Positions 1,845 through 19,157 of a stretch of 64,000 nt of DNA are shown piece after piece. The stretch is from Bacteroidales bacterium. Lineage in GTDB: Bacteria; Bacteroidota; Bacteroidia; Bacteroidales; UBA932. Made by a program: the position numbers and the translations under genes. Within the stretch, counting starts at the first letter, position 1, and every line of letters starts with the position of its first letter. Below the pieces are notes generated by a model. The model worked only from the letters and a program-made list of their open reading frames with translations. It did no database searches and was not told the DNA's origin. Where the stretch lies: contig SUYO01000001.1 of the NCBI GenBank assembly GCA_015060385.1, forward strand, positions 124,001 through 188,000, read 5' to 3'.

Positions 1845-1878
1845 AGAAGGCGACTAAATCACTTTTTAGTCGCCTTCT
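1845..1878 (-). terminator. Terminator of the large minus-strand envelope operon
   Basis: A perfect 14-bp stem (1845-1858 with 1865-1878) and 6-nt loop lie 25 bp beyond the stop of the 939-aa lipoprotein gene. The stem is strong, but only a weak T-run follows on the minus strand. Confidence 0.7.
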
Positions 1879-1902: not shown

Positions 1903-4722
1903 TTACACACCGAAACCGCCTGAAATGTCGAGCTTCTCGACATATGTCTCATAGTAGTTGCCTTCTGCATCCCAGATTACAGTATAGATATTGTAACCTT
2001 TGCTTGCATATGGCTGTGAATATGTCTCGCCTGCAACAATCTCCTTAGCACCTACATACTCATCTGTGAGGATGTACTGTACCTTTGACTTTGCTGAAGG
2101 ATAGTTAATAAGATAGTCCTCAGACATACATGTTGTAACGCCTGAGAAGCCTTCAGGAAGTTCTACGCTCCACTCTACAGTTGTAAAGTCACCTACCTGG
2201 CTGGTTGTATACTCAACAGTTGGCTTTGCAGCTACCCATGCAGCATTCTCTGCTCCGCTGTCATCCGTTGCGAATACGAACTCACCGAGATCCATTGATG
2301 GAGTGAACTCAAGCATGGTAGCCTTGGTGAATGTACCATCAGCAAGCTCTGCAGAAACGACGAAGATTGAAGGAGCACCTACTGTAAGATCTTCGATTTC
2401 AACACCCTCTGCAGGAACATCAGCAGCAGCTACCTTATCAAGAAGGTATGAGTTAGGTGTAAGAGCGATGAATGCGCTCGCTGTCTCTACAGAACCGCCA
2501 AGATATGACGGGCTGGTCCACTGGTAAGAATCTGCAGTACCTACCCAGTAGTAATACTTCACAACCTCAGCACCCTCGCAAGAAAGCTTTACCTTGCCTG
2601 TCTGAGCAGGAGTTCCCTGAAGTTCTGCCTTTACTACAGCTTCAGCATAAGTCATCTCCTTTGTTGTATAATCCTTCTGGAATACAGGACCATACTTACC
2701 GTCCTTATCAACTGCCATTGCAATGAGAGTCTTTGTCTGGCTTGGAGTGAGGCTTGCCTGCAATGCATTAGCAGGGCTTCCCTTAGAAACAGCACCATTC
2801 TCAAGGAGGTATTCAGCCTTGTCTTCAATTGTCGACACCATCTCAGGATCTACGAACTTATAGTAGATATAAACAGCACCTTCTGCATTAAGAGGAACTG
2901 TGATTCTCTTGTGCTCGAGGACAGCCTCGCCTGGAGTTACTTCGAGAGAACCGCCTGCTGCAAGAGCCGGAGTAGCCCACTCATAGAAGTATACATCAGC
3001 CATGGTATACTTGGTCTTGCCTTCCTCTACAGGAATCAGGTAGAGATAGTACTTCTCATCCGGTCCGATTTCCTGCCAGCCTTCTACGAGGTCGTTAGGA
3101 TTACCTGTATATACACCATCTGTTGTTACATCACTTACCATGAATGCCTGTGGAGCGCCCCATGAAGAAGTCAGACCTGAGTTGAACTCTGCAAGAATGC
3201 CTTCCTTATTGAGCTCGTCAGAATACAGCATTGAGAACGTACCGTAGAATGCCTCTACGCCTTTGAAGTCAGCAGTGATCTGGATATCATTGAAAGCAAG
3301 CTTAGTTGTCTCAAGGTTGATATTGGCATTGAGATATTTAACAGACTCCACATCACCTAAATAATAGCCTGACGTCCATGTCGCATCATCCATCCATGAC
3401 TCAAGACCGATTACCCATACGACATAATGCTCACCAGGTGTCATCTCGACTGAAGATGCAAGGTCAGCTATAGGATAATCCTGAAGAGATGAATCAAAAT
3501 AGTTATCATCAAGAGGGGTCTCATTCTCAAGGACATACCAAGGAGACCAACCGTAGTCCATCCAGTCATATGGATCCGGAACATACTCTACTACAGGCTT
3601 AAGCTCTGCAAGGATTGCCTCAGGGTCGAAATCATCTACAGTTGAAATACCCACAAGGTATCCTCCAAGACCATTGTTCATAGTGATATTGAGGTTACCC
3701 TTTCCGGCAGTGATTGACTTGAATGGCTTGGTAGTAACGAATACTGAAGCCGTTACGCTCTTGCCACCCTCAGCTACAGCGACAACCTTGATGTTACCCT
3801 CTGCGACAGCAGCTCCGGAAGCAATTGCCTCCGCACTTGGTGCTGTTACAAAGAACTCAGCCTGACCGTACTCCTTAAGATACTGGGTATCCTCCTTAAC
3901 CTGCCATCCTGCAGGAAGTTCCTTCACCCAATCAACGATATTTGCAGCAACAACAGGGATAGAAACTGTAGAACCGGTTGAAATGTACTGTGTCTTGATA
4001 GGACCGCCATAATTAGAAGCAAACATAAATGAAGAAGCACCGTCAACAGTTACAGTATATGTATTTCCGTCAGGAAGAGTTACTGTAACATACAACGGAG
4101 TCTCCTCATAATAACCAGTAGCTTCCTCTTCGTCAGTATAGTTGTCTGTATAAACAACTTCTGCACCTGAGAATACGCAGTAAGTATCAGTACCTACCTC
4201 GATCCAAGTCTTACCCTCATCGAATGAAAGTTCGATGACACCGGTCTCAGAATCAACCCTAACCTGAGGAACCACTGAAACCACAGGAACAGGCTTGCCG
4301 TCAGCGTCAGTTACGACAACTGGCTTACCATCCTCATAAACAGCCCAGCATACGACACCGTCAATCTTGGTAGTCGTTACAAGACCTGTGAGATCCTGCT
4401 CGTACTCAGGATAAACGACGAAAGACTTTCCGTCTGAGAGGGTGATCTCGAAAGAACCGTCAGTGTTCTCTGTGCATGCAGTAACGGTCACGAGCTTGTC
4501 AACCTCGCCCTGAAGTGCTGCGATCTGACCTTCGAGCAAAGACTTGAGGGCAGCGAGCTCAGTGTTGAGCTTTGTCTCAAGATCTGTAAGTTTCTGCTCG
4601 ACCTTGTCAAGTCTGTCAATAAGAGCAGAGTCATCGTAGCACGATGTGAAAACAGGAGCTGCGAGAGCCGCGAGAATCATCGATCCTCCGACCATCTTCT
4701 TGAAAAATTGTCCGATTTTCAT
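1903..4722 (-). CDS. Large surface lipoprotein with N-terminal coiled coil (DUF4988-like), 939 aa
   Basis: The N-terminus is a lipoprotein signal (hydrophobic 11-24, then PVFTSC with lipid Cys 28). Residues about 33-75 form a heptad-like coiled coil (DRLDKVEQKL...), the arrangement seen in Bacteroidota lipoproteins with DUF4988-type N-termini. The rest is beta-rich and looks like tandem immunoglobulin/Fn3-like sandwiches rich in Tyr, Trp and acidic residues. No enzyme motif is visible. It is the last gene of the TlpA-DUF6029-Omp28 operon, 50 bp after the preceding lipoprotein gene, and is followed by a strong hairpin. Probably outer-membrane anchored and surface exposed; function unknown. Confidence 0.8.
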   Translation of the reverse strand: MKIGQFFKKMVGGSMILAALAAPVFTSCYDDSALIDRLDKVEQKLTDLETKLNTELAALKSLLEGQIAALQGEVDKLVTVTACTENTDGSFEITLSDGKSFVVYPEYEQDLTGLVTTTKIDGVVCWAVYEDGKPVVVTDADGKPVPVVSVVPQVRVDSETGVIELSFDEGKTWIEVGTDTYCVFSGAEVVYTDNYTDEEEATGYYEETPLYVTVTLPDGNTYTVTVDGASSFMFASNYGGPIKTQYISTGSTVSIPVVAANIVDWVKELPAGWQVKEDTQYLKEYGQAEFFVTAPSAEAIASGAAVAEGNIKVVAVAEGGKSVTASVFVTTKPFKSITAGKGNLNITMNNGLGGYLVGISTVDDFDPEAILAELKPVVEYVPDPYDWMDYGWSPWYVLENETPLDDNYFDSSLQDYPIADLASSVEMTPGEHYVVWVIGLESWMDDATWTSGYYLGDVESVKYLNANINLETTKLAFNDIQITADFKGVEAFYGTFSMLYSDELNKEGILAEFNSGLTSSWGAPQAFMVSDVTTDGVYTGNPNDLVEGWQEIGPDEKYYLYLIPVEEGKTKYTMADVYFYEWATPALAAGGSLEVTPGEAVLEHKRITVPLNAEGAVYIYYKFVDPEMVSTIEDKAEYLLENGAVSKGSPANALQASLTPSQTKTLIAMAVDKDGKYGPVFQKDYTTKEMTYAEAVVKAELQGTPAQTGKVKLSCEGAEVVKYYYWVGTADSYQWTSPSYLGGSVETASAFIALTPNSYLLDKVAAADVPAEGVEIEDLTVGAPSIFVVSAELADGTFTKATMLEFTPSMDLGEFVFATDDSGAENAAWVAAKPTVEYTTSQVGDFTTVEWSVELPEGFSGVTTCMSEDYLINYPSAKSKVQYILTDEYVGAKEIVAGETYSQPYASKGYNIYTVIWDAEGNYYETYVEKLDISGGFGV

Positions 4723-4772
4723 AATTGAAAGAATTAATGTTAATAATAAAAAATAGTGTTATAGTAATAGTA

Positions 4773-6995: not shown

Positions 6996-7005
6996 AGTAA
7001 TCATA

Positions 7006-8049
7006 TTATTTTAATCTGTAATCTTCATCACCTCCGTCCAGCAGACAGAAATTCATATTGTTTACTCTGCCGTCAGAACCGATCGCCAGAACATATACGT
7101 ATGTCTCTTCCAGGTTCCAGGCATCGTCAACAGCGATCTCATAAGTGGCTTCAACCTCCTTACCGGCCACCGCCATTCCACTTCCTATCCTGTCTCCCTT
7201 ATATGTCTCTGAAACTATCTGCCTTACAACGTGTCTGTGGGTGTACTGCTCGTGTTCCTTCATACCGTCCTTCTGATAGGCCTTCACCTTGTCCTCTACG
7301 ACATATACTGCTGTACGCCATGAACCTGACATCTCGGGAAAGAGCCTCACATTCACCGAAGCCCTGCCGGCGGCAAGTTCGGATGAAACGGCGACTCCGC
7401 AGCATGGACCGTTATCCTCGAAAGCCTCGTTAAGATGCTCCTTGATATTGACACTCTCGACAAGAGAGCCCCCGAGATACATATCCACCACATATGATGG
7501 GAAACCGAACGAGGCCACGTTCATGTCCATCATTATCTTGTCTGTCTGATCTATGGCAAGAGGGTCATCTCCGCTGGTATCGCTGTGGAAGGCCATCTCA
7601 TGGACACGCTCCTTGAAAAGAGAATTCGACTGAACGACAAAGTTCATGTTCGTATAACCCTGAGGGCAGTTTGCACACCATGCACCTGTAAATTCCCACA
7701 ATGCCACATGCTTCTCGAACTGCGATTCGCCTGTAAATTCAGACTCGACTGCCCTTACAGCAATCTCCTTTGACTCCTGACCCTCATATATTGCCTTGAA
7801 GCTGTAGACGCCAGGCTCGAGGGTTGAGAAAGTGTTTCCGGAAACCGGTGTGCCGGAACAGTATATGGTACTGAGCGAAGTGACATCCTTACCGTCAGAG
7901 GTGACGGTAAAGGTAACCGCATCGGCTCCGTCAGCCACAATCTCGACCTTGTCTGCCTGAAGTTCAGGAACAGCACTGACATCAGGAGTAACCTCTCCAC
8001 ATCCTGCCAGAGCCGACAAAGCTACGATCATCAAGTAAAATCTCTTCAT
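7006..8049 (-). CDS. Omp28-related outer-membrane lipoprotein with thioredoxin-like CxxC (paralogue 1)
   Basis: Lipoprotein signal ends LAGC (Cys 17). Residues about 30-100 form an Ig-like domain containing DGADAVTFTV, a pattern shared by all four paralogues in this window. The next part is thioredoxin-like, with EFTGAWCANCPQ placing the pair at Cys 125/Cys 128, and it continues through an Omp28-type C-terminal domain. The Omp28 family was named from a Porphyromonas outer-membrane protein; its biochemical role is not settled. WCANC resembles active thioredoxins, so redox competence is plausible. Middle gene of the operon, 8 bp after paralogue 2. Confidence 0.85.
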   Translation of the reverse strand: MKRFYLMIVALSALAGCGEVTPDVSAVPELQADKVEIVADGADAVTFTVTSDGKDVTSLSTIYCSGTPVSGNTFSTLEPGVYSFKAIYEGQESKEIAVRAVESEFTGESQFEKHVALWEFTGAWCANCPQGYTNMNFVVQSNSLFKERVHEMAFHSDTSGDDPLAIDQTDKIMMDMNVASFGFPSYVVDMYLGGSLVESVNIKEHLNEAFEDNGPCCGVAVSSELAAGRASVNVRLFPEMSGSWRTAVYVVEDKVKAYQKDGMKEHEQYTHRHVVRQIVSETYKGDRIGSGMAVAGKEVEATYEIAVDDAWNLEETYVYVLAIGSDGRVNNMNFCLLDGGDEDYRLK

Positions 8050-8057
8050 TGCTTATG

Positions 8058-9143
8058 TCACTTTATAAGATAATCCGCCTTCTCACCTATCCTGCACTCG
8101 TTCGCATTGTTGCAGTTGAAGGTAACTCCTCCGTCTGAAGTCGTCATCGCAATGACCACAACCTTCATGTTGTCCACATTCCAATCCTCAGGCAGAGCGG
8201 TGCTGTTCACGGCAGTGACCTCAACTCCCGGGGTGAACGGGTTCTTCTTGTTCATGTTGAGTCCCGTCACGTCTGTCGCAAACATCTTTCTGACGACATT
8301 GTCATGGATATATCCTGCATCGGCACCGGACTGTGCATACTCGATTCCACTCTCGACAAGGAAGACATGGTACTTGTAACGTGCCGCCACATTTGAAGTG
8401 ATCCTGGTTGTCACTGAAAGTTCGCGGGATGCGTCGTCATATTCAGTATCGACGGCAACACCACATGTGGCGGGATAAAGCTCAAGCTCTTCCTCAATGG
8501 CCTCCTTGATGGCCTCACGATCGACTCCTCCGTCCCTTTTTCTCATGTTGAGGTTGAAATACGGAAGTCCGGACATCCCGTATGCCTTATAGAACAGGCC
8601 GGTCGCCTCGACTGTCATGGGATCAGTCATGTTGTAGTCCATATGGAATGACAGAGGTATGAGCACCTGCGGCATCTGTGCCTGAACGTTCTTTATCTGA
8701 TAGCTGAGGGTCGGACAGTTGACGCAGCCTACAGATGTGAACTGCTCTCCTATGACCTTCTGGACATAGCTCTTCTGGCCTTCTACCGGAGAAGCGTTTA
8801 TCACGATTTCGTTCTCGGACCAGTTGTCGCCGCCGGAATAAAGATATGCCTTGAAAACATATTCTCCTGCTGCGGTTGTAGAAAAGACATTTGCACCTGC
8901 CGACATCTCGACCGTCTTTCCTCCTGAAGTCCAGACCAGCTTCATGGTCCTGTCGTTGCTTACATCCTGAGAACCGAACATCACACGGAAGGTGACGCAG
9001 TCGGCCCCGTCAGCGGCAATGGCCTGCTTGTCCGCAAATATCTTCAGGACGCCTTCCGGCACAACCTCCACGGGATCTCCACATGAGAGCAGGGAGGCGG
9101 CAGAAACGGCCACAGCCATAATATATCTGAAAAAAGTCTTCAT
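8058..9143 (-). CDS. Omp28-related outer-membrane lipoprotein with CxxC (paralogue 2)
   Basis: Lipoprotein signal with LLSC (Cys 21). The Ig-like domain (about 35-118) carries DGADCVTFRV, with an extra Cys. The thioredoxin-like part has FTSVGCVNCPT, giving Cys 140/Cys 143, but the usual Trp before the first Cys is Gly here. Length (361 aa) matches its neighbours, with which it shares the same order of parts. It is 6 bp from paralogue 3, so translation is probably coupled. Most likely an outer-membrane lipoprotein of the same system with altered redox potential or a different partner; that last point is inference. Confidence 0.82.
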   Translation of the reverse strand: MKTFFRYIMAVAVSAASLLSCGDPVEVVPEGVLKIFADKQAIAADGADCVTFRVMFGSQDVSNDRTMKLVWTSGGKTVEMSAGANVFSTTAAGEYVFKAYLYSGGDNWSENEIVINASPVEGQKSYVQKVIGEQFTSVGCVNCPTLSYQIKNVQAQMPQVLIPLSFHMDYNMTDPMTVEATGLFYKAYGMSGLPYFNLNMRKRDGGVDREAIKEAIEEELELYPATCGVAVDTEYDDASRELSVTTRITSNVAARYKYHVFLVESGIEYAQSGADAGYIHDNVVRKMFATDVTGLNMNKKNPFTPGVEVTAVNSTALPEDWNVDNMKVVVIAMTTSDGGVTFNCNNANECRIGEKADYLIK

Positions 9144-9149
9144 CGAAGT

Positions 9150-10244
9150 CTAGTTATATCTGTAATCCAGTGTCTCACCGTATCCGCACTCCGCACAATT
9201 GTTCACCTCGGATTTACCGTCAGCGTTCTTCCTGTGCACAAGGACGACAGCCCTCATGTTCTCAAGGATGCTTTCAGACGGAACTGACTCGAAGGCGAAT
9301 TCGAAGTCACGATCATATTCGGCATCTTTCGCAAGGTCAAAAGCAGAGGCAGCCCTGTAGGTAAGGAAATTGTCACCGCTGACCGCAAGAACGACGTTGC
9401 TGTAAAGGTTCTCGTCATTGTCCGTATATCCGCCCTCATATTTGAGATTGTCCGCTACAAGGACGCATACCATGTCATATGTACCGGCTGCACTTGCCTT
9501 TACGGATGCAGACACCTTGACCGAATTTCCCTCAAGTCCCACTGAAGATATCCTTACTCCCACATTTGCAGGGGAATTGACCCTGCGCTCCATGATCTCA
9601 TCCACGATGGTCACCGTGCTTGAAGAAGTGTTCAGACTCACCATGTCATAGCAATTGGTAGGATATGCGGCAGCGGTCTCTCCCATCTGAAGGAACACTG
9701 AAGATGCGAGGTCGGTTCCGTTATACGGGACATGGAAAGGGTGGCCCTTTTCTTCCGAATGACAGGCGAGGACAATTGAATGGTCCGCAGCATCACCCTC
9801 AAGAGAGTGAAGGGCGGCAGTCATCCTCGGGCAGTTGACGCACCATGTACCTGTAAGCTTGAAGATCGCCACATTCCTGTGGAACACCTCGTAGTCCGCA
9901 CGGTTCACAGACTTGATCTTGACCGAGTTCACTGTCTCTTCGCCGTTGTATATACCCACGAACTCATATTCGCCGTCGGCTATGGATGTGAACGACTTGG
10001 AATATCTCGGGAGGCGTGTGTCATCGGCTACGTTCTTGAAGAATACAGAGCCCATCTCGGCCTCCGTACTGACTTCAACATCCCCACGCATTATCCTGAA
10101 TGTGGCGGCATCCCTGCCGTCAGACTCGATCTGTACCTTGTCCACTACGATGGTGAGTCCACCTTCCTGACCACCTATCGGATCGCCGCATGATACGACT
10201 GCAAGAAGTACGGCTGAGAGCAGCGCTGAAAAACGTCTGATCAT
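9150..10244 (-). CDS. Omp28-related outer-membrane lipoprotein with CxxC (paralogue 3)
   Basis: Lipoprotein signal with VVSC (Cys 19). The Ig-like domain (about 30-112) has DGRDAATFRI. The thioredoxin-like region has KLTGTWCVNCPR (Cys 135/Cys 138), with Trp and Pro as in active thioredoxin folds. A stretch with SIVLACHSEEKGHPFH contains further His and Cys. It is the first of three consecutive Omp28-like genes, 7 bp after the DUF6029 barrel gene. The tandem arrangement with diverged sequences suggests old duplications with separate roles rather than a recent copy-number change. Confidence 0.84.
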   Translation of the reverse strand: MIRRFSALLSAVLLAVVSCGDPIGGQEGGLTIVVDKVQIESDGRDAATFRIMRGDVEVSTEAEMGSVFFKNVADDTRLPRYSKSFTSIADGEYEFVGIYNGEETVNSVKIKSVNRADYEVFHRNVAIFKLTGTWCVNCPRMTAALHSLEGDAADHSIVLACHSEEKGHPFHVPYNGTDLASSVFLQMGETAAAYPTNCYDMVSLNTSSSTVTIVDEIMERRVNSPANVGVRISSVGLEGNSVKVSASVKASAAGTYDMVCVLVADNLKYEGGYTDNDENLYSNVVLAVSGDNFLTYRAASAFDLAKDAEYDRDFEFAFESVPSESILENMRAVVLVHRKNADGKSEVNNCAECGYGETLDYRYN

Positions 10245-10251
10245 ATTCTGC

Positions 10252-11892
10252 TTAGAATGAAGTTGTTATTGTTACGCTTGCACCTGTGTATGCAGGAATC
10301 GTACGGCATACTCCGCCTGAGCAGATGAATCCTGCCTTGTAGCGTCCATAGCCGAGGGCGACTCTTGTACGTGACCTGGTATAGCTTACACCGGCATTGT
10401 AGTAATGCACTCCTGTGCTTCCGTGATTGTACATATCGCTTCCGTAAACGCTCCAGTGCGGTGCGAAGTTGACCTCGAGAAGGGCTGCCATCCAGTCCTT
10501 CTTGTCCTGTCTTGTATGAAGATACTGGAGCTCCAGCTTTGTGGACAGGGTCGGAGTCCACTTGTAGAGCAGGTCAGCCACGACGATGTTCTGGGTCATG
10601 TATTCCGGAGAAGCGCCATACGACTCGTTGTACTGCTGGAGAGAGTACAGGAGGATGGTCTTGAACTTCTTGGTCCACTGTCTCTCCACATCGAAACAGA
10701 AATCCCTGAAAAGAAGGTTGCCCGGGCTGAATGTTCCTTCCCTGGCGATCGCATAATAAGTCGAGAAGTTCGCATGCACCCTCATTCCCCTCTTTCCACC
10801 GATTCTGGTACCGCGACGGAAATTGTAGAATGCGTCGATCTGACCGCCCATCTCACCGCTGTTAGCGAAGTTCTGCTGGAGCAGACCTGTCTGAGGGCTG
10901 TACGGGTGGAAGTTCGTAAGCATGTAGGTATACTGCGTAGACATCGCAGGTACATAATTCATCATGTTGGATGTAGACACGTTACCTGAAATGATCTGTG
11001 ACTTCATCCACTCGAGACGACGGCCGGTCACGGTAAGACCGAGTCCGCGACCGTTATATCCGAATTCGATCAGCTGGGCATTTCCTTTCTTCTTGAGGTA
11101 CCACTCGTCTGAATTGATGTCCGGATTCTGGTAGTATTTCGTACCGGCACCCACATACTCGGCCTTCGCGAAGAAGCCGTTGCTTTCAAAATTGGCTCTT
11201 GCCGAATATCCGAGGGAATTAGGCTTGCCTCCTTCGTCGATCAGGTCAGCTGAAATCGGCTCATACCTGCTCAGAAGCGATCCCTCGACAGAAAGGTATA
11301 TTGAATTCCAGTCCAGAAGGTTGGAAACGACGAAAGAGAGATCGGCACCCCTCACCTGGGTCTCAAGATTGGTCGGCGTCTTCTCCTTGTTTACGTTATT
11401 GGTGAACACACCCATGCCGAAGCGTGGAAGTCCCCATAAAGCCTTGAATGCGACAATATCTTCAAAATTATAGGTGAACCTTGCGCCTGTGACGGCATTG
11501 TTCAGACCCAGAGATCTTTCCTCCCAGCTTCTGAAAAGAAGACCGCTTCCGAACTGGTCGTAGAAGGTACCAGCCGTAACGGAGAAATCCTCATCATTCC
11601 ATGTAGCGTAAATGTTGCTGAGGTTGATGCCGGAAAGTTCGGAAGGATAACCTACAGCAGCAGGGAGATAACCCTCTATCTGCATTCCTGCAGTAAACTT
11701 TCCGTTGTAGTAATCAAGCTTGAGATAATTGTTCGAGCCGAAACGGTCATCACCTGCTACAGCGCCTGAAGCCTTGTCATTGACATATGTATAGTCATTG
11801 CTTTCAAGACTACCTGTGACATATGCACCTTCCTGGGCTGAAAGAGAAAAAGATGCTGTCGAAAGCACGACAGCAAGTAACAGTTTTTTCAT
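10252..11892 (-). CDS. DUF6029-family outer-membrane beta-barrel protein, 546 aa
   Basis: The chosen start is ATG 11892, which begins MKKLLLAVV and a classical signal peptide ending SLSAQ; the upstream TTG at 11901 is unnecessary. The mature protein is full of alternating aromatic and hydrophobic strands and ends in SVTITTSF, a C-terminal Phe typical of outer-membrane barrels. Sequences such as DQFGSGLLFRSWEERSLG are typical of the DUF6029 family of Bacteroidota. It lies directly between the TlpA-like gene (15 bp upstream) and three Omp28-like lipoproteins (7 bp downstream), so I infer it works with them, perhaps as an outer-membrane platform or exporter. The biochemical role of the family is not known to me. 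Confidence 0.8.
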   Translation of the reverse strand: MKKLLLAVVLSTASFSLSAQEGAYVTGSLESNDYTYVNDKASGAVAGDDRFGSNNYLKLDYYNGKFTAGMQIEGYLPAAVGYPSELSGINLSNIYATWNDEDFSVTAGTFYDQFGSGLLFRSWEERSLGLNNAVTGARFTYNFEDIVAFKALWGLPRFGMGVFTNNVNKEKTPTNLETQVRGADLSFVVSNLLDWNSIYLSVEGSLLSRYEPISADLIDEGGKPNSLGYSARANFESNGFFAKAEYVGAGTKYYQNPDINSDEWYLKKKGNAQLIEFGYNGRGLGLTVTGRRLEWMKSQIISGNVSTSNMMNYVPAMSTQYTYMLTNFHPYSPQTGLLQQNFANSGEMGGQIDAFYNFRRGTRIGGKRGMRVHANFSTYYAIAREGTFSPGNLLFRDFCFDVERQWTKKFKTILLYSLQQYNESYGASPEYMTQNIVVADLLYKWTPTLSTKLELQYLHTRQDKKDWMAALLEVNFAPHWSVYGSDMYNHGSTGVHYYNAGVSYTRSRTRVALGYGRYKAGFICSGGVCRTIPAYTGASVTITTSF

Positions 11893-11907
11893 ATTGACCA
11901 AGCCATT

Positions 11908-12396
11908 TTACTTTGAACATTCCTTGATTGCCTTCAGAAGCTCAAGTTCGCTGCCCGGAGCATATGAAGTATGCGAGTATACGATCTTGCCCTTTCCGTC
12001 AACTACAAATACATGAGGGACAACTGAAACATTCATGGCTCTCATGAAGTCCTTGTTCTTGTCGAAGAGGAGGACGAAATCCTCTGACCATCCGCGTCCT
12101 TCCGCAAATGACTTTGCCTTTGCAAGCATTCTGCTGTCATCGGTAGCAACCGCCACAACACGGAAGTCAGCCTCCTCGGTCCAGTCAGGCATCGCGTCAT
12201 ATACGGCGTCAAGCTCCATGATGCATGGCTTGCATGTAGTCGACCAGAAAGAGATGATCATAGGAGTACCTTCATCAAGAAGGGTCTTTGTGTCGAAAGT
12301 TTCGCCTTTGGCAGTCTCAACCTTTACTGAAGGGACCTGAGCGGCTGCTACAAAAGAAACAAGGGCAGCTGCGAGAGATAAAATGATCTTTTTCAT
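11908..12396 (-). CDS. TlpA/ResA-like periplasmic thioredoxin
   Basis: A cleavable signal peptide (MKKIILSLAAALVSFVAAAQ) is followed by a compact 140-residue thioredoxin fold. The active site is SFWSTTCKPCIMEL, Cys 55/Cys 58, and the cis-Pro region is SVVPHVFV. Proteins of this type reduce or exchange disulfides in the periplasm. It is the first gene of a seven-gene operon whose next members are a barrel protein and CxxC lipoproteins, which suggests it supplies or removes electrons for those lipoproteins. A -7 box lies at 12456-12463, giving a leader of about 50 nt. Confidence 0.88.
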   Translation of the reverse strand: MKKIILSLAAALVSFVAAAQVPSVKVETAKGETFDTKTLLDEGTPMIISFWSTTCKPCIMELDAVYDAMPDWTEEADFRVVAVATDDSRMLAKAKSFAEGRGWSEDFVLLFDKNKDFMRAMNVSVVPHVFVVDGKGKIVYSHTSYAPGSELELLKAIKECSK

Positions 12397-12455
12397 ATAT
12401 GATTTCGGTTTTTTACAATATAAAATACCCCCACCCAGAAGGGCGAATATTTAGG

Positions 12456-12463
12456 CAAAAGTA
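12456..12463 (-). promoter_or_regulatory. -7 box (TACTTTTG) for the TlpA-DUF6029-Omp28 operon
   Basis: Minus-strand TACTTTTG fits the Bacteroidota TAnnTTTG consensus and sits about 60 bp before the TlpA-like start. No clear -33 TTG was assigned. Confidence 0.45.
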
Positions 12464-12493
12464 GTGATATTTATCTTTTTATAAAAATTTTTC

Positions 12494-13303
12494 TTACAAA
12501 TCAAGCAAATTATACAAGACTGCCGTCTGCCTTGCCTCCCTGACATCGTGTACACGAAGGATGTCGGCCCCCGCCATCAGGGCAGCCATATGTACGGCCT
12601 GGGTAGCTGGAAGAGCTTCATCGGGAGAAATTCCGAGAGGCTTGCATATCATGCTTTTGCGGGATACGCCGACCAGGATGCGAGGGGCGGGAGATACTTC
12701 CTTGAATAAGGAAAGGCGGGAAAGGAGTTCGTAGTTCTGTTCCACGGTCTTGGCGAATCCGAAACCCGGGTCCAGAATCCAGTTCCTTATGCCGAAACTG
12801 TCAGCCTTTGCAGCAAAAGCGGTAAAATACCGGCAGACTTCCTCCGTAACATCCTCATAATCAGTCATTGCCTGCATATCCACCGAAGTGCCACGCTTAT
12901 GCATCGCCACATATTCAAGGCCCAGACGCCCGACCAGCGGAAGCATCGACGGATCGTCTTCCCCTGCCGATATGTCATTGACCATGAAATCACCTATGGA
13001 GTCATAAGCCTTTGCGACCACGGAGGACCAGTATGTGTCGATGGAGAGCCGAAGGTCGGGAAACGCCTCCCTCAGAACCGGCAGGACAGGCGCGAGTCTC
13101 CGCCATTCCTCATCTGCTCCTACCGGAAGCGAACCGGGACGGGTCGAGCATGCACCAAGATCCACGATGTCCGCACCGTCCTCAACCATGCCGGCCACGC
13201 GCATAAGGACTGCGTCTGCATCGGCGCACCTGCTGTCCGCGAAATAGGAATCATCGGTCAGATTCACGATTCCCATGATGTCTATATGTCTGTCCGTTTT
13301 CAT
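12494..13303 (-). CDS. folP: Dihydropteroate synthase
   Basis: This folate-pathway enzyme joins p-aminobenzoate to the pterin diphosphate. Recognisable motifs are MGIVNLTDDSYF (10-21), DLGACSTRPG (48-57), LSIDTYW, VNDISAG, DPGFGFAKT and the GVSRKS loop near the C-terminus. The length (269 aa) is normal. NLTDDSY replaces the commoner NVTPDSF. The annotated ATG is at 13303, but a -7 box at 13308-13315 leaves no room for a leader, so translation may begin at Met 10 (13276) or the transcript may be leaderless. It diverges from tmk. Confidence 0.93.
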   Translation of the reverse strand: MKTDRHIDIMGIVNLTDDSYFADSRCADADAVLMRVAGMVEDGADIVDLGACSTRPGSLPVGADEEWRRLAPVLPVLREAFPDLRLSIDTYWSSVVAKAYDSIGDFMVNDISAGEDDPSMLPLVGRLGLEYVAMHKRGTSVDMQAMTDYEDVTEEVCRYFTAFAAKADSFGIRNWILDPGFGFAKTVEQNYELLSRLSLFKEVSPAPRILVGVSRKSMICKPLGISPDEALPATQAVHMAALMAGADILRVHDVREARQTAVLYNLLDL

Positions 13304-13307
13304 GCCG

Positions 13308-13315
13308 CAAAAATA
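13308..13315 (-). promoter_or_regulatory. -7 box (TATTTTTG) for folP
   Basis: It matches TAnnTTTG on the minus strand and ends only 5 nt before the annotated folP ATG, which implies a leaderless transcript or a downstream start. Confidence 0.4.
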
Positions 13316-13358
13316 GTAAAAAGATTGCCACGCCGCCCGACGTGAGAATCTTTTTGTT

Positions 13359-13366
13359 TATATTTG
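13359..13366 (+). promoter_or_regulatory. -7 box (TATATTTG) for tmk
   Basis: It fits TAnnTTTG and lies 27 bp before the tmk ATG. Confidence 0.5.
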
Positions 13367-13393
13367 TAAGTTGAATTTTTAAAGGAAAGAATC

Positions 13394-14074
13394 ATGCTTG
13401 TAGTACTGGAAGGTCTGGACGGCGCAGGAAAGTCCACTCAGGTCAAGAAACTCAGAGCCTATCTCGAAAGTGTTTTCGGGAATCTCGAATACATACATTT
13501 TCCAAGATACGACGCTCCCGTATATGGAGAGCTCATAAGCCGCTTCCTACGCGGGGACTTCGGTTCGAACGAAGCTGTACATCCTCAGCTTGTGGCCCTG
13601 CTTTTCGCAGAAGACAGACATGGCGCAGCACCAGACATGAAGAAGGTGCTGTCGTCGGGCGGCACGGTCCTTCTGGACCGCTATGTATATTCGAACATAG
13701 CCTACCAGTGCGCCAAGCTGAAGGACAGCGAAGAGGCGGCTGACCTTCGCGAATGGATATTCAACACCGAATACGGAGACTTCGACCTGCCTAGGCCTGA
13801 CCTCAACATCTTCCTCGATGTACCTATCGGCTTTGTGGAGTCGAAACTGAAGAGCCAGAGAGGCGGCGCCGACAGGGACTATCTTGAAGGCGGGCAGGAC
13901 ATCCACGAAGCGGACATCGAGTTCCAGAAGAAGGTAAGGGACATATACAGGAAGCAATGCGAGATCGACCCTAAGTTCATCCGGATAGACTGTTCGGACG
14001 AAAACGGAGAGATGCTTCCTCCGGGCGCAATCTTTGAAAAGGTCAGGGAAGTCGTTGATTCTGCAATACTTTAG
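13394..14074 (+). CDS. tmk: Thymidylate kinase
   Basis: dTMP kinase of dTTP synthesis. The P-loop is GLDGAGKST (7-15). The HFPRYDAPVYG segment and DRYVYSNIAYQ match substrate-binding motifs of the family, and a LID-like region follows (SQRGGADRDYLEGG). The length (226 aa) is slightly above the usual 205-215. The downstream DoxX/MauE-like gene starts 4 bp after the TAG, so the two are probably co-transcribed. Confidence 0.93.
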   Translation: MLVVLEGLDGAGKSTQVKKLRAYLESVFGNLEYIHFPRYDAPVYGELISRFLRGDFGSNEAVHPQLVALLFAEDRHGAAPDMKKVLSSGGTVLLDRYVYSNIAYQCAKLKDSEEAADLREWIFNTEYGDFDLPRPDLNIFLDVPIGFVESKLKSQRGGADRDYLEGGQDIHEADIEFQKKVRDIYRKQCEIDPKFIRIDCSDENGEMLPPGAIFEKVREVVDSAIL

Positions 14075-14078
14075 GCTT

Positions 14079-15260
14079 ATGAACTATCTTCTGCTGCGTC
14101 TGAAACGCTTCTGTGGCTTTGTCACAGGCTTTGTCTTCTTCATCGGAGGCATACTGAAACTGATGGATCCCGTCGGAGCCGGCCTGGTAATGGGAGAATA
14201 TCTGGACTTCATGCATCTCAGATTCCTGGGCTTCGCCTCCAAGCCTCTCGGCGTGGCTTTCGCCCTGGCTGAGACAGTGGTAGGAACGGCCCTCATAACG
14301 GGAGTTTGGAGGAAGGTCATGGGAATCGCAGCAATGGTCTTTCAGGCATTCTTCACGATCCTTACGCTTGCCCTTGTGATATTCAATCCGGAGATGGACT
14401 GCGGATGTTTCGGGGAGGCGATACACCTTACCCACATGCAGACCTTCCTCAAGAACATAGTGCTCTGCATTCTGCTCTGCATCTATTTCTTCCCTGCGAA
14501 GATGCTTGGTGTCAACCTGAAGAAGAAATATGTCTCATTTGCAATAGTGACGGCATCCGTCCTTGCATTCACGGTCTATTCATGGATGTACATCCCTCTG
14601 GTCGACTTCACCGACTACAAGCCAGCTGCGGCGCTGAAGGCAGGCCATGCCTTCAGCGAAGATGAAGACGACATGTATGAAGCCGTATTCATATATGAGA
14701 AGGATGGAAAGGAAGAGGAATTCGATCTCAGCCATCTGCCTGACTCGACATGGAACTTCGTAAGGACCGAGACAAAGGTGAAGGAAGGGTATGAGGAAGA
14801 CAAGAGGATCGACCTCTCGTTCCATGACGCGTCCGGGGATTACCATGACGAACTCGCAAGCGAGGGAAAGGTAATGGTCATTTCCGTCTATGACACTGAC
14901 ATCAAGGCCGGCAGGTGGCAGAGCATCAGCACATTCGCCCGTAATGCCGAAGAAGCCGGATTCAGGTCTCTTATCCTTGTTGCAGGGGAAATACCTCAGC
15001 ATATGCTCATGCAGGACAACGTATATACCGCAGACTACAAGACCCTCCTTTCACTTAACCGTTCCAACGGAGGTGCCACGTATTTCAGCAGGGGATATCT
15101 TGTCCGCAAGTGGTCTGCCAGATCCCTGCCGTCCCTGGAGAAGCTTATCGAGATCAGCGGCGAAGACGAGACGGAAACCATCATATATCATGATACAAAA
15201 GGAAGCCTCGGTTTCCAAGGCTTCCTTCTATATGTTTTCGCAGTGATGTTATTGCTTTAA
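14079..15260 (+). CDS. DoxX/MauE-like membrane protein with C-terminal extracytoplasmic domain
   Basis: Start chosen at ATG 14079 (MNYLLLRLKR); the longer frame from 14034 overlaps tmk. Four hydrophobic segments in the first 150 residues and the motif NPEMDCGCFGEAIHLTHMQT are typical of Bacteroidota DoxX/MauE-type proteins. A fifth segment (about 145-165) leads into a roughly 200-residue extracytoplasmic domain with a thioredoxin-like strand order (VMVISVYDTDI) but no CxxC of its own; the Cys pair is in DCGC. The C-terminus ends in a further hydrophobic stretch. MauE relatives take part in disulfide formation during methylamine dehydrogenase maturation. It is convergent with the fourth Omp28-like gene. 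Confidence 0.75.
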   Translation: MNYLLLRLKRFCGFVTGFVFFIGGILKLMDPVGAGLVMGEYLDFMHLRFLGFASKPLGVAFALAETVVGTALITGVWRKVMGIAAMVFQAFFTILTLALVIFNPEMDCGCFGEAIHLTHMQTFLKNIVLCILLCIYFFPAKMLGVNLKKKYVSFAIVTASVLAFTVYSWMYIPLVDFTDYKPAAALKAGHAFSEDEDDMYEAVFIYEKDGKEEEFDLSHLPDSTWNFVRTETKVKEGYEEDKRIDLSFHDASGDYHDELASEGKVMVISVYDTDIKAGRWQSISTFARNAEEAGFRSLILVAGEIPQHMLMQDNVYTADYKTLLSLNRSNGGATYFSRGYLVRKWSARSLPSLEKLIEISGEDETETIIYHDTKGSLGFQGFLLYVFAVMLLL

Positions 15261-15266
15261 GCCAAG

Positions 15267-16382
15267 CTATTCCGCATACTCGAACTGCTTGATGCCGTCG
15301 ATAGGGGCTGTGATCACATTGTTCACATAATAGCTCCTTCCGGCAGCGTCCGGAACGGATACAAACACGCAGATCTTGAGGTTCTCGACCTTCCAGTTTT
15401 CCTTCAATGTCCAGGTGAACATCTTTTCAGCAGTCTTGCCTTCATCGATCACACCGAGCTTTACGCCGGAATACATCGATCCCTGCTTTGAATCCGCAAT
15501 ACGGATGCAGTCATCGAACTCGTGATACCAGCTGTTCTCCTCACCGGCAGGAGCACCCTTCTGCTGTCCCTTGATGTTATCCTCGAGAAGCCATGCGCCT
15601 ACACGGAACTGGCCTGTCTCGGCAGCCTTCACGCTGACCTTGAGGGTGATAGCTCCGTCCGCATACTTTGAGTTGACCGCGATTCCGGCCTTTGCTTCTT
15701 CAGCCGAATATCTTTCATTTACAAGGGAAACAAGATTCTCATAGGAAACATCAGTCGACTGGACAGCCCAGTCAACGATCACTGTAGGGAATGCGCTTAC
15801 AGAATAGAAGCTTCCCGAGAAGTATGCCGGGTCATTCGAAGTAAACGTATGGGCCTCTGCCTTGACTGCATTGGCTGCAAGCTTATGCTCATCGAAGAAC
15901 TTGTGCAGAGCTGCTGTAGCATTAGGGCAGAACTGGCACTCCTGTCCGGTAAACTTGGTGATGAGGACTCTTCTGACGAAGGAAGTGCTCTCCGGCTTAG
16001 GGTCCTCAGGGGTCTCTGGGACATCAGTCATCACGGATGTGACTGTAACCGTATTGGAATTGAATGTCTTGTAGTTTGCCCAGAACGAGAACTCGCCTGC
16101 CTCTGTCACGGTAAACTTGAATGACGGGCCAAGGTCAACCGGCTTGTTGTCACTGCCGTAGAAGGTAACACCTTCAGTAAGTACCTTGTCACCGATCTTT
16201 ACGGTAAAGGTAGCCGCATCGACTCCGTCTCCACGGATGATCAGCTTGTCAACATCAAGTACGAGGTCACCTTCTTCAATGACCGGATCATCTCCTCCTT
16301 GTCCGGAATCCGGATCTCCGCAGGAAGCGAAGAGCATCACTGCTGCTGTGAGCAGTGATGCAAATCTGAAAACATTCTTCAT
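15267..16382 (-). CDS. Omp28-related outer-membrane lipoprotein with CxxC (paralogue 4)
   Basis: Lipoprotein signal with FASC (Cys 21), an acidic linker, then the shared Ig-like domain (about 42-118, with DGVDAATFTV). The thioredoxin-like part carries KFTGQECQFCPNA, Cys 149/Cys 152; here Trp is replaced by Glu and the CxxC contents differ (QF). It follows the 923-aa lipoprotein gene by 3 bp, so the two are surely co-transcribed. This pair echoes paralogue 1 plus the 740-aa lipoprotein in the main operon. Separation from that operon by folP, tmk and the DoxX-like gene suggests a split or duplicated locus. Confidence 0.83.
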   Translation of the reverse strand: MKNVFRFASLLTAAVMLFASCGDPDSGQGGDDPVIEEGDLVLDVDKLIIRGDGVDAATFTVKIGDKVLTEGVTFYGSDNKPVDLGPSFKFTVTEAGEFSFWANYKTFNSNTVTVTSVMTDVPETPEDPKPESTSFVRRVLITKFTGQECQFCPNATAALHKFFDEHKLAANAVKAEAHTFTSNDPAYFSGSFYSVSAFPTVIVDWAVQSTDVSYENLVSLVNERYSAEEAKAGIAVNSKYADGAITLKVSVKAAETGQFRVGAWLLEDNIKGQQKGAPAGEENSWYHEFDDCIRIADSKQGSMYSGVKLGVIDEGKTAEKMFTWTLKENWKVENLKICVFVSVPDAAGRSYYVNNVITAPIDGIKQFEYAE

Positions 16383-16385
16383 ATA

Positions 16386-19157
16386 TTACTTTCTGTAATT
16401 ACGGATTGACTCTTCAAACATCTCCTCAGTAAGAACATACATCTGCTTCTTCTCGAAAGAACGGACCTCGATGTTCTTGATAGGCGTAACCGACTTTACA
16501 ACTACCGGAGCAGCTGCCTCGCCTGAGACATTGATCTGCTCGACATAATTGCGACGGGCTGATCTTGCCGGAGTCTCCTCCTCAGGCTCATCCCATCCTC
16601 TGGTCAGGGTGATCTCAGCGACGATAGGTCTGATAAGGCTTGCATCAGCCTCGCCCCAGCCACCGATGGCATTAGGATAGTGAGGATAAGTCTCGGCACC
16701 GGCCTCGTCAGTTACAGAGGCCATTGCAGGCTTGATGATGATCTTGTCATTGTTGACTACAGTCACAGGGAATTCTGCAGGCATGATGACATCTCCGGCC
16801 TCATTGGCAACCTCAGACTTGTAGCCATGGTTTGTCTCTGAGTTGTATCCTGCCATGAAGAACACAGAACTCTGCCAGTTTACCATAGGAGGAGTCTCCC
16901 ACTGGTCAAACGGTACGAAGACGTTTCCTTCCTTGTCGATTTCAATATACCACTTAGGACCGAAGTCGTAGAAGATCTGTGCATTGTCGATCGAGCTGTA
17001 CTCGTTCCATGTAAAGAGATCGAACGGTGTCTTTGTCTCGAGACGGCCTGGAACGGCATACGGATCATAGTCATCCCATCCCATGCAGAGGAGTCTGTTA
17101 CGGTATGTAAGTCTGTACTTGTTGAAGATCTCCGCCTCACGCTTGAAGTCCTCGTAGAAGCCGTCAACCGCCTCCTTCGAGTGTCCCAGGTCTGCATAGA
17201 GGTCATAGATATCCTGGGTAAGTACCGGAGTTTCAATCGTATTTCTGATTTCCACCTTGAATGAAATATTCTGCTTGAACTCCTGGATCTCGTTGTTTGC
17301 ATCATACTCCCTTACCATCACGGTAGTGTTTGCAGTCCATACTCCAGGAAGGGTCTCGAAGAGCTTGTTGTCGATGGCAGGTACCAATGCAAGGAGCTTG
17401 GTGCTGCAGTCTGCGACGGATACGCATGGCTTGCCGGTCTTCTCAGGTGAATAAAGGTCATTTGATGTTTCCTCATCGTTGTATCCGAGAACAGCCATAC
17501 GCACGATCTGACCATCTGTAGAGTTTATCTGGATCTCAAGACCTTCGTCAGAGTTGATCTTCTCAAGTTCTTCTTCGCTGAAAGGATTCTGGCAAAGGTT
17601 CTTGTAATCTGTTCCTGAGTTTGCCTCAAGCATGAACTCCCTCTTGTAGTCAGCCGCATAGTAAGCCCTGATCACATCCTTGTTAGGAGCCTTGATGTTG
17701 AACTTCGCAAAATACTCGTTCTGACCATCCTCTACTGCAGTAACCTGGATGACAGGTGCTTCCTTGGTCTTTGCCACAGTCTCGAATGTCTCATGGATGA
17801 ACTTCTGTCTTGATCCCTGCTCATCACCTGTAACGGTTATAAGGACATGGTAAAGATTCTCCGCATCGAGAGGAATACCGTTGAAATCACGTGCGTTGAC
17901 CTGGGCATCTCCCTGAAGGGTAGGGAAATAAAGCTGACGCATTCCGTAGTATGAGCATACAAGCCACTGCATCCATTCCTCATGACCGAGAAGAAGGTCG
18001 TTCACGAGAGTCTGGTACATCGAGTCGCTGCAGATCACATATGAATAACAGTATGTGTTCTCATCGGTAAGGAAGCTGATAGTAGCATCGATAGGTGAAA
18101 CATCCTCGATCACAACCTGGAAGTCGGTCTCAAGAAGATCAGGTTCCTTGGTCTTGAAATAGAGGACCTGGAGAGTACCGTTCTCGCCGAACGAGTTGTC
18201 TTCCCAATACTTCTCCTCTCCGGTGATCACTGTACCTGCCTCAGAATCGAAGATGAGGTCAGACTTCTTAGGAGCATCGCCATACTCGGCAATCCATCCT
18301 GCCTCGTCCCAAAGAGGAATGTAATATCCCCAGTCCTTGGACTCCGCACCATATGACCAGCCCCAGCCGGTCTCGTCAAGGTGTCCGTACCTGTACTGTC
18401 CTGCGATGAAGATATAAGGCTCGCCCGGTGCGATAGGTGTATGAAGCATGAGCTCCTCACCGGTATCAGGATCGACATAGTATGAACCGTCAGGATTCTG
18501 TCTGTTCTGGTTCCATGGGTTGATATACACAGTAGTATCCCTCTGGGTCTCCTGCCAGCCCATGCAGCCGTGTCCGTTCTCCATAAGGCTGACAGCCCAC
18601 GTACGACCCATCTCGTACTTGGTCATGAACACATCAAGCAAAGAACCGAAGTTGTAACGGATTCCATATTTCTTAGGTTCCTTCCTCACCTCTTCAGGCA
18701 CAGTGACGCGGATCTTGTAACCCTGATACTCAGTGTCTACGAGAGTAAGCATCTTGTCGAACACATAGTCTGAAGTAGTGAAATCCACAGACACGACATT
18801 ATCATAATAGTCATCCTTGTTGATCTTCGCCGCAAAATACACCCAGTATTTCTTGTTAGCCTCAAGGTCGGTAATCTTAAGCGATACCGCTGAAGTATCT
18901 ACCGCCACACCTGTTGCAAAGACTACAGCCTGATTCGAATAATCTCCTTCCTCGGTAGCAAGTACGTATGCCACCTCTTCAAGTGCCGCGATATTGAGTC
19001 CGAGCTCGGCGGTAGTCTCGGTCACAGACTTCACGGTCACTTCCAGAACAGGGTCCGGTCCCTCCGGAATCGGATCCGGCTCGACACAGCTGCTGGTCAT
19101 GAGGGCAGTCATACCTGCCGACAGCAGCAAAAACATCTTAAGAATTGATTTTTTCAT
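16386..19157 (-). CDS. Large Fn3-like lipoprotein, 923 aa
   Basis: Lipoprotein signal ends TSSC (Cys 24), followed by an acidic, proline-rich linker (VEPDPIPEGPDP). Residues about 36-130 look like a fibronectin type III domain (SVTETTAELGLNI... KYWVYFAAKI). Further beta-sandwich units follow, including EDVSPIDATISF, which resembles a unit in the 740-aa lipoprotein. A basic patch (PARSARRNYVEQINVSG) lies near the C-terminus. No enzymatic motif is seen. First gene of a two-gene transcript with Omp28 paralogue 4, driven from the divergent promoter at 19203-19235. Probably surface exposed; function unknown. Confidence 0.75.
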   Translation of the reverse strand: MKKSILKMFLLLSAGMTALMTSSCVEPDPIPEGPDPVLEVTVKSVTETTAELGLNIAALEEVAYVLATEEGDYSNQAVVFATGVAVDTSAVSLKITDLEANKKYWVYFAAKINKDDYYDNVVSVDFTTSDYVFDKMLTLVDTEYQGYKIRVTVPEEVRKEPKKYGIRYNFGSLLDVFMTKYEMGRTWAVSLMENGHGCMGWQETQRDTTVYINPWNQNRQNPDGSYYVDPDTGEELMLHTPIAPGEPYIFIAGQYRYGHLDETGWGWSYGAESKDWGYYIPLWDEAGWIAEYGDAPKKSDLIFDSEAGTVITGEEKYWEDNSFGENGTLQVLYFKTKEPDLLETDFQVVIEDVSPIDATISFLTDENTYCYSYVICSDSMYQTLVNDLLLGHEEWMQWLVCSYYGMRQLYFPTLQGDAQVNARDFNGIPLDAENLYHVLITVTGDEQGSRQKFIHETFETVAKTKEAPVIQVTAVEDGQNEYFAKFNIKAPNKDVIRAYYAADYKREFMLEANSGTDYKNLCQNPFSEEELEKINSDEGLEIQINSTDGQIVRMAVLGYNDEETSNDLYSPEKTGKPCVSVADCSTKLLALVPAIDNKLFETLPGVWTANTTVMVREYDANNEIQEFKQNISFKVEIRNTIETPVLTQDIYDLYADLGHSKEAVDGFYEDFKREAEIFNKYRLTYRNRLLCMGWDDYDPYAVPGRLETKTPFDLFTWNEYSSIDNAQIFYDFGPKWYIEIDKEGNVFVPFDQWETPPMVNWQSSVFFMAGYNSETNHGYKSEVANEAGDVIMPAEFPVTVVNNDKIIIKPAMASVTDEAGAETYPHYPNAIGGWGEADASLIRPIVAEITLTRGWDEPEEETPARSARRNYVEQINVSGEAAAPVVVKSVTPIKNIEVRSFEKKQMYVLTEEMFEESIRNYRK

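What the first reader, a model, noticed from the sequence alone, without database searches (positions are those of the whole stretch)
1903..19157. A 17-kb envelope thiol system: TlpA, DUF6029 barrel, four Omp28-like lipoproteins and three giant lipoproteins
Two minus-strand units carry one periplasmic thioredoxin (Cys 55/58), one outer-membrane barrel, four CxxC lipoproteins and three 740-939-aa lipoproteins. A DoxX/MauE-like protein with a DCGC pair sits on the opposite strand between them. Everything recognisable is exported and most members carry a thiol pair. I infer an electron route from the inner membrane through the periplasm to outer-membrane lipoproteins, or a chaperone/export path for the giant lipoproteins. 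The clustering is seen; the mechanism is inference.
Basis: partly seen in the sequence, partly recalled or inferred. Interest (0 to 1): 0.75.

Follow-up and report, generated by a model that had tools for sequence, protein, structure and literature searches.

The report
Thiol relay across the outer membrane
Across one large bacterial phylum, a predicted outer-membrane barrel with one nearly invariant cysteine pair is usually encoded next to a thioredoxin predicted to work in the periplasm and to thioredoxin-like proteins predicted to sit on the cell surface, and the set likely passes thiol electrons across the outer membrane, a job for which I found no described system.

Summary

The core is phylum-wide. 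In 58 loci a CxxC thioredoxin lies within 400 bp of DUF6029 in 49, and Pfam's Omp28 domain within 1.5 kb in 41 (52 with a broader profile). Omp28 occurs in 49 of 69 DUF6029-positive genomes and 4 of 178 negative ones. In the window's family the same 17 of 79 genomes hold both. Where Pfam finds no Omp28, another thioredoxin with an apparent surface signal takes its place (19 of 19 genomes). The giants and the MauE neighbour were not found in the 58 loci.

The predicted 24-strand barrel carries the pair in its last hairpin, on the outer side by topology. Omp28b has the fold of HBP35, a surface thioredoxin. One genome encodes DsbD beside TlpA and DUF6029.

Best reading: a thiol-disulfide relay from periplasm to surface. 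The module is shown by comparison; electron passage, direction and protein locations are inference.

The parts
11908..12396 (-). tlpA: thioredoxin predicted to be soluble in the periplasm, CKPC (Cys55/58; codons 12232-12234 and 12223-12225)
   Evidence: AhpC-TSA/Redoxin over Pfam cut-offs; CKPC cysteines kept in the window and 6 of 6 close relatives
10252..11892 (-). DUF6029: predicted 24-strand outer-membrane barrel
10306..10323 (-). C-x4-C hairpin of the barrel (C524-S-G-G-V-C529), between the last two barrel strands
   Evidence: 124 of 124 rows; 90 of 92 copies in fetched loci; hairpin strands 521-525/528-532 in the model; codons checked
9150..10244 (-). Omp28-like lipoprotein c: lipobox Cys19, C135/C138-P, plus C350/C353
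   Evidence: PF11551 at 33.4 bits, just under cut-off 34.9; 35.9 with its neighbours in the frame
8058..9143 (-). Omp28-like lipoprotein b: lipobox Cys21, C140/C143-P
7006..8049 (-). Omp28-like lipoprotein a: lipobox Cys17, C125/C128-P
   Evidence: PF11551 71.1 bits
4773..7004 (-). 743-aa giant lipoprotein (lipB), accessory of this clade
   Evidence: no Pfam/NCBIfam match at E 0.01; relative in 6 of 6 named loci, cut by the end of the fetched stretch in L101 and L102; none in 58 phylum loci
1903..4722 (-). 939-aa giant lipoprotein (lipA) with N-terminal DUF4988, accessory of this clade
   Evidence: PF16378 55.2 bits; orthologue at the same place in 4 of 6 named loci, weaker matches (21-26 % identity) in the other two
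1845..1878 (-). terminator-like 14-pair stem after unit 1
   Evidence: pattern match only
15267..16382 (-). Omp28-like lipoprotein d: lipobox Cys21, C149/C152-P
   Evidence: PF11551 94 bits
16386..19157 (-). 923-aa giant lipoprotein (lipC), accessory of this clade
   Evidence: no family match at E 0.01; orthologue in L097, L098, L100 and a relative in L110
12494..13303 (-). folP (dihydropteroate synthase), cytoplasmic; neighbour, not part
   Evidence: sequence, name recalled; terminator-like site between it and tlpA at 12430-12447
13394..14074 (+). tmk (thymidylate kinase), cytoplasmic; neighbour, not part
   Evidence: sequence, name recalled
14079..15260 (+). MauE/BT_3928-like membrane protein with C108-G-C110; probably a passenger
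   Evidence: PF07291 52.8 bits; NF045576 237.4 bits, under its cut-off of 250; no relative in the 58 phylum loci

Best explanation
TlpA, the DUF6029 barrel and the Omp28 lipoproteins form one conserved gene module that likely carries thiol-disulfide electrons across the outer membrane. Inferred path: the inner-membrane reductase DsbD would reduce periplasmic TlpA; TlpA would dock at or in the wide barrel and pass the electrons to the barrel's conserved cysteine pair, which lies in the last hairpin on the predicted outer face; the pair would then reduce the CxxC of thioredoxin-fold Omp28 proteins, predicted to be held on the surface by a lipid anchor (here) or a type IX sorting tail (in other lineages). 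The surface thioredoxins would then reduce disulfides, peroxides or bound metal and haem outside the cell. Shown here: gene neighbourhood, joint presence and absence, conserved cysteines, predicted folds, and the swap of one thioredoxin with a surface signal for another. Not shown: location, redox state, contact, direction and substrate. The outward, reductive direction is the weakest step. The three giant lipoproteins are an addition of this clade, perhaps surface clients or adhesins.
Against: No location, redox or interaction data. TlpA is missing beside DUF6029 in six of 58 loci that are not cut there (L049, L054, L061, L063, L065, L071), and L061 has neither partner nearby. In five positive genomes (G212, G043, G017, G216, G208) the Pfam Omp28s lie on other contigs or over 100 kb away. 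Four of 52 nearest profile neighbours lack CxxC and may match only through the type IX tail. DsbD is found in every genome searched, positive or negative, and linked to the locus only once. One genome without DUF6029, G156, has strong Omp28 matches, though one is cut by a contig end. A purely structural C-x4-C disulfide in a hairpin would be conserved too. Genes kept side by side are gained and lost together even without joint work.
Confidence: 0.48

Rival explanations
1. Redox-assisted channel: DUF6029 moves a small ligand (metal, haem or a thiol compound) through the outer membrane, and the thioredoxins on each side reduce the ligand or open and close the channel through the C-x4-C hairpin.
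For: The nearest folds are pores, many of them channels such as OccK and AlgE. The structural relative HBP35 binds haem and its deletion slows growth without haem (PMC2907840, abstract and Discussion read). A wide barrel is more than two thiols need.
Against: In my clustering no third gene family recurs in more than 10 of the 58 loci, although the clusters were not annotated, so a ligand-specific partner is not excluded. The barrel has no other column with 10 or more cysteines in 59 rows. It does not by itself explain several thioredoxin-like surface proteins in one locus.
Confidence: 0.25
2. Assembly or export platform: DUF6029 carries Omp28 lipoproteins (and here the giants) to the surface, with TlpA as a folding helper.
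For: Linkage and joint presence; the best fold match is the FimD/PapC usher pore, which passes folded subunits (recalled); the giants flank the barrel in close relatives.
Against: In many lineages thioredoxins of the locus carry a type IX sorting tail (10 of 10 confirmed among proteins chosen because a tail was seen), so their way out is already supplied. An export channel does not need a conserved cysteine pair. The giants have no match in the 58 phylum loci.
Confidence: 0.13
3. Barrel biogenesis: TlpA and Omp28 only form or repair the C524-C529 disulfide so that the barrel folds.
For: The pair is invariant in 124 aligned sequences and sits in a tight hairpin next to the last strand.
Against: One disulfide does not need four thioredoxins with surface signals, as in this window, nor their replacement by other thioredoxins elsewhere.
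Confidence: 0.08
4. Polysaccharide secretion porin, as suggested for DUF6029-like barrels.
For: HHpred similarity of some Wzi-like barrels near OPX genes to DUF6029 (PMC9603273, passages); AlgE among the fold matches.
Against: The recurring neighbours are thioredoxins. No Pfam match of that class among the ten window proteins scanned; the loci were not searched for such genes.
Confidence: 0.05

Closest known systems
HBP35 of Porphyromonas gingivalis (PDB 5y1a; PMC2907840)
   Different: HBP35 has a C-terminal domain of the Por (type IX) route; the window's Omp28s have lipoboxes. The physiological role of HBP35's thioredoxin domain is described as unknown (Discussion).
DsbD-TlpA/ResA/CcmG periplasmic thiol relays (recalled)
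   Same: TlpA-class carrier; DsbD present, and adjacent in G210.
   Different: Known relays are recalled to end in the periplasm; here the chain would continue through an outer-membrane barrel to the surface.
MtrCAB trans-outer-membrane electron conduit (recalled)
   Same: Same plan: periplasmic carrier, barrel, surface redox lipoprotein. A chain of the Mtr complex is a Foldseek match of the barrel (rank 7, TM 0.38, generic).
   Different: No CxxCH haem motif among the CxxC motifs of the parts; the chemistry would be thiols.
FimD/PapC usher pores
   Different: About 10-12 % identity; no chaperone or pilus family among the ten window proteins scanned; DUF6029 has the conserved cysteine hairpin.
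Omp28 domain of P. gingivalis (PDB 2r2c)
   Different: Only a domain was solved; I saw no function attached to it.

Membership tests
DUF6029 (PF19494) | score over the family cut-off across the whole profile | tested here: met
   562.6 bits against 27, profile 1-538 of 538
Omp28 domain (PF11551) | score over the family cut-off | tested here: met
   a 71.1, b 87.6, d 94 bits against 34.9; c 33.4, just under, 35.9 with frame neighbours
Omp28 family outer membrane lipoprotein (NF033782) | score over the subfamily cut-off of 150 | tested here: not met
   45.6, 66.7, 19.4 and 53.9 bits
TlpA/ResA-like thioredoxins | AhpC-TSA/Redoxin domain with CxxC and signal peptide | tested here: met
   60 and 54.9 bits over cut-offs, CKPC; signal peptide by eye; NCBIfam ResA, DsbE and TlpA cut-offs not reached
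HBP35-like surface thioredoxins | shared fold over thioredoxin domain and following beta domain | tested here: met
HBP35-like surface thioredoxins | type IX sorting tail | tested here: not met
   no tail match for the window's four Omp28s; lipobox instead. Proteins at other DUF6029 loci have the tail
HBP35-like surface thioredoxins | disulfide-reducing activity | not testable with these tools
   needs a protein assay
MtrCAB-type conduit | multihaem CxxCH cytochromes | tested here: not met
   CxxC motifs of tlpA and the four Omp28s are CKPCI, CANCP, CVNCP, CVNCP, CAECG and CQFCP
BT_3928 family (NF045576), for the MauE-like gene | score over cut-off 250 | tested here: not met
   237.4 bits
OPX-linked polysaccharide porins | an OPX gene nearby | not tested
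   no OPX search was run over the loci
Trans-outer-membrane thiol relay (proposed) | thiol exchange between TlpA, barrel pair and surface thioredoxin | not testable with these tools
   needs trapping and redox-state experiments

The most novel reading that the evidence does not exclude
A phylum-wide thiol wire through the outer membrane: a periplasmic thioredoxin feeds electrons to a cysteine hairpin of a 24-strand barrel, which keeps a coat of surface thioredoxins reduced. It would be a haem-free counterpart of MtrCAB and the missing electron supply for surface thioredoxins such as HBP35 and Omp28.
Probability: 0.4. Interest if true: 0.92.

Novelty: categorically new. Interest (0 to 1): 0.8.

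Why it matters
To my knowledge the outside of a Gram-negative cell is thought to have no dedicated supply of reducing thiols. Some Bacteroidota show proteins of thioredoxin fold on the surface, and the paper that characterised HBP35 left the physiological role of its thioredoxin domain open (PMC2907840, Discussion). A dedicated barrel with thioredoxins on both faces would answer where the electrons come from. It would give DUF6029, a family that one paper in the library mentions, a testable function, and open a route to surface redox chemistry in gut and rumen bacteria. Even if electrons do not pass, a barrel inherited together with thioredoxins of both compartments matches no kind of system that I know of.

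Tried and rejected
Giants as core parts: rejected, because none of the three finds a relative in the 58 phylum loci. In the window's family only L110 of 16 loci shows a lipC relative, and none a lipA or lipB relative at E 1e-6. They are kept in synteny in the named relatives. Their cysteines are poorly kept apart from the lipobox and one Cys each in two of them (C865 of lipA, 5 of 5 rows; C691 of lipC, 4 of 4 rows).

MauE as the inner-membrane donor: not supported. No relative lies in the 58 loci. In named relatives it lies beside tmk, and its strand relative to unit 1 changes in L098.

DsbD presence as evidence: dropped, since 32 of 32 positive (of 69 available) and 40 of 40 negative genomes (of 178) have it. 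Only the single linkage is used.

The solved-structure sequence search gave nothing firm for Omp28b (2axo, E 0.23) or DUF6029. A Fur-regulon paper came up through locus tags that belong to potassium transport genes. The PG53 and thioredoxin hits in two type IX papers were reference-list entries. Prior description: library searches for Omp28 or DUF6029 (20 of 123 papers listed), DUF6029, Omp28 with Bacteroid and lipoprotein, Omp28 with TlpA and thiol/electron-conduit terms showed no paper on this module in what was listed; most subscription journals are not held.

Counting caveats. The Omp28 profile that I grew also takes in other thioredoxins and type IX tails: 7 of its 52 neighbours are in family f24, where Pfam finds no Omp28. 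Counted by Pfam places alone, 41 of 58 loci have Omp28 within 1.5 kb (coordinates typed; two of the 41 frames have an internal stop and some matches are under the cut-off). G227 (E 7.6e-4, under the cut-off) has no DUF6029-like frame on inspection, so 69 is really 68. The automatic lipobox and tail classifier (34 of 58 with both kinds) is crude: it missed lipoboxes visible by eye (for example L062, L070, L071) and misread some TlpA signal peptides; it is not used as a count.

Full report
WHAT IS THERE. The window is positions 124001-188000 of contig C9 of a 75 % complete genome. The nearest named relatives found are six Bacteroidales/Bacteroidia metagenome genomes, three of them from cow, water-deer rectum and yak caecum by title. 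Unit 1 on the minus strand runs tlpA, DUF6029, omp28c, omp28b, omp28a, lipB (743 aa), lipA (939 aa), with gaps of at most 50 bases. It ends at a strong terminator-like stem, and a weaker one separates tlpA from folP. Unit 2 is omp28d and lipC (923 aa). Between the units lie folP, tmk and a MauE-like gene. DUF6029 scores 562.6 bits against a cut-off of 27; three Omp28s pass the Pfam cut-off and the fourth is just under. Each Omp28 has one CxxC followed by proline, and omp28c has a second CxxC near its end.

THE MISSED FEATURE. DUF6029 has three cysteines here; two of them, C524 and C529, form a C-S-G-G-V-C motif that ends 17 residues before the C-terminus. In 59 aligned DUF6029 rows no other column has 10 or more cysteines, while these two have 58 and 57. 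They are invariant in 124 sequences (the window's and 123 from two searches, down to 29 % identity). Over the fetched loci 90 of 92 copies have the pair; of the two without, one is frame-broken, its last part lying in the next frame, and one is truncated at 372 aa.

NEIGHBOURHOOD ACROSS THE PHYLUM. DUF6029 was found in 69 of 247 genomes, the window's included; one of these, G227, is spurious. I fetched 58 loci from 57 of the other positive genomes and searched them with profiles grown from the window's proteins. A TlpA-like protein lies within 400 bp in 49 of 58. Pfam's Omp28 domain lies within 1.5 kb in 41 of 58. My broader profile, which also takes in other thioredoxins and type IX tails, finds a neighbour within 1.5 kb in 52 and both partners in 45; in 33 of those 45 the order is TlpA, DUF6029, partner on one strand. 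In two more loci TlpA is one gene further (L038, L084). L039 is cut by a contig end. L049, L054, L061, L063, L065 and L071 have no TlpA nearby. More than 3 kb from DUF6029 the same loci hold 7 TlpA-like and 16 Omp28-profile genes in 614 kb, predicting about 1.2 and 7.6 loci by chance. Ten further positive genomes show TlpA next to DUF6029 in 10 of 10 and a second CxxC thioredoxin with a type IX-like tail or a lipobox in 10 of 10, signals read by eye. In the window's family 16 of 16 other loci have TlpA next to DUF6029 on the same strand. By profile 15 of 16 have an Omp28-like gene in the fetched stretch, one of them about 6 kb off, and in the sixteenth (L115) the Pfam search places a fragment beside the barrel.

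JOINT PRESENCE. Omp28 was found in 49 of 69 DUF6029-positive genomes and in 1 of 80, 3 of 80 and 0 of 18 of the 178 negative ones; of these four only G156 is over the cut-off, and one of its matches is cut by a contig end. Fisher's p is 1.3e-30 by genome; by family, 21 of 23 against 1 of 21, p 5e-9 (counts typed from the tables; related genomes are not independent). The cleanest test is the window's own family: 17 of 79 genomes have DUF6029 and exactly the same 17 have Omp28; 62 have neither. Genera g1, g127, g131, g132 and g135 contain both states, so the pair has probably come or gone together several times. Linked genes do so anyway, which limits what this shows.

WHAT REPLACES OMP28. In many lineages the thioredoxin of the locus is not a lipoprotein but ends in a type IX sorting domain: 10 of 10 proteins that I chose for their visible tails carry TIGR04183. 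In family f24, where Pfam finds no Omp28, 14 of 16 fetched loci have a Redoxin-type protein with CPHC (CSHC in one) and such a tail (three confirmed by Pfam), usually with an extra lipoprotein thioredoxin; two (L124, L128) show only the latter. In L088 it is a lipoprotein of TlpA type with CPSC. In all, the 19 real positive genomes without a Pfam Omp28 each have such a protein. So the recurring plan is a thioredoxin without anchor, a barrel with a cysteine pair, and a thioredoxin with a surface signal, whatever its subfamily. That acidic residues behind the lipobox mark surface lipoproteins in this phylum is recalled knowledge; the window's proteins have such residues (CGDP, CGEV, CYDD, CKEE, CVEP).

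SOURCE OF ELECTRONS. DsbD was found in 32 of 32 positive genomes searched (of 69) and in 40 of 40 negative ones (of 178), including one copy in the window's genome. In G210 one of two DsbD genes lies directly after tlpA and DUF6029 on the same strand (L057 6961-9114, 9053-10705, 10708-11193). This single linkage is the best hint for an outward, reductive direction.

THE GIANTS. lipA, lipB and lipC stay with the module in the named relatives as far as the fetched stretches reach; L101 and L102 carry a second DUF6029 copy with two lipA-like giants between the copies. They have no relative in the 58 phylum loci and no CxxC. Identity to close relatives is 74-86 % for TlpA, 62-84 % for the orthologous barrel, 35-72 % for Omp28s and 30-78 % for giants, a gradient that would fit a conserved inside and a varying outside.

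VERDICT. The relay mechanism is my best reading at about one in two, with a redox-assisted channel as the main rival. In the literature held here DUF6029 appears in one paper, as a possible polysaccharide porin (PMC9603273, passages). Omp28 of P. gingivalis is named PG2173, a reportedly immunoreactive lipoprotein (PMC9722745, passage). A 2026 preprint links thioredoxins, one of them HBP35-like and predicted to be on the surface, to Muribaculaceae on a high-fat diet (PMC13404670, passages); I saw no barrel or relay proposed in the passages read.

Noticed in passing
L095 7461-9782 and 9884-11557 (contig C9 91461-93782 and 93884-95557, left of the window): Two more Omp28 lipoproteins (773 and 557 aa) with WCGFCP/WCGYCP and N-terminal repeats with a C-x4-C (FCGNGTC and similar), beside a 1064-aa lipoprotein-like frame.
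   Followed up: partly
L101 2580-4256 and 9965-11596; L102 2295-4001 and 9911-11581: A second, diverged DUF6029 copy directly after tlpA, with two lipA-like giant proteins between the two copies.
   Followed up: partly
L057 6961-9114: DsbD gene directly after TlpA and DUF6029 on the same strand; the genome has a second DsbD elsewhere.
   Followed up: partly
L077 9214-10833; L078 9128-10246; G279:C61:48353-50124; G261:C36:21973-22347: Frame-broken or truncated DUF6029 and Omp28 copies in some genomes, which may be decay or assembly error.
   Followed up: no
L037 10698-11432, L040 7546-8274, L085 11432-12142 and similar: A small protein of about 240 aa with a type IX-like tail and no CxxC recurs next to TlpA in families f17 and f35; it matches my Omp28 profile, perhaps only through the tail.
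   Followed up: no
window 240-1313: S41-type peptidase-like frame (name recalled) before the cluster on the + strand.
   Followed up: no
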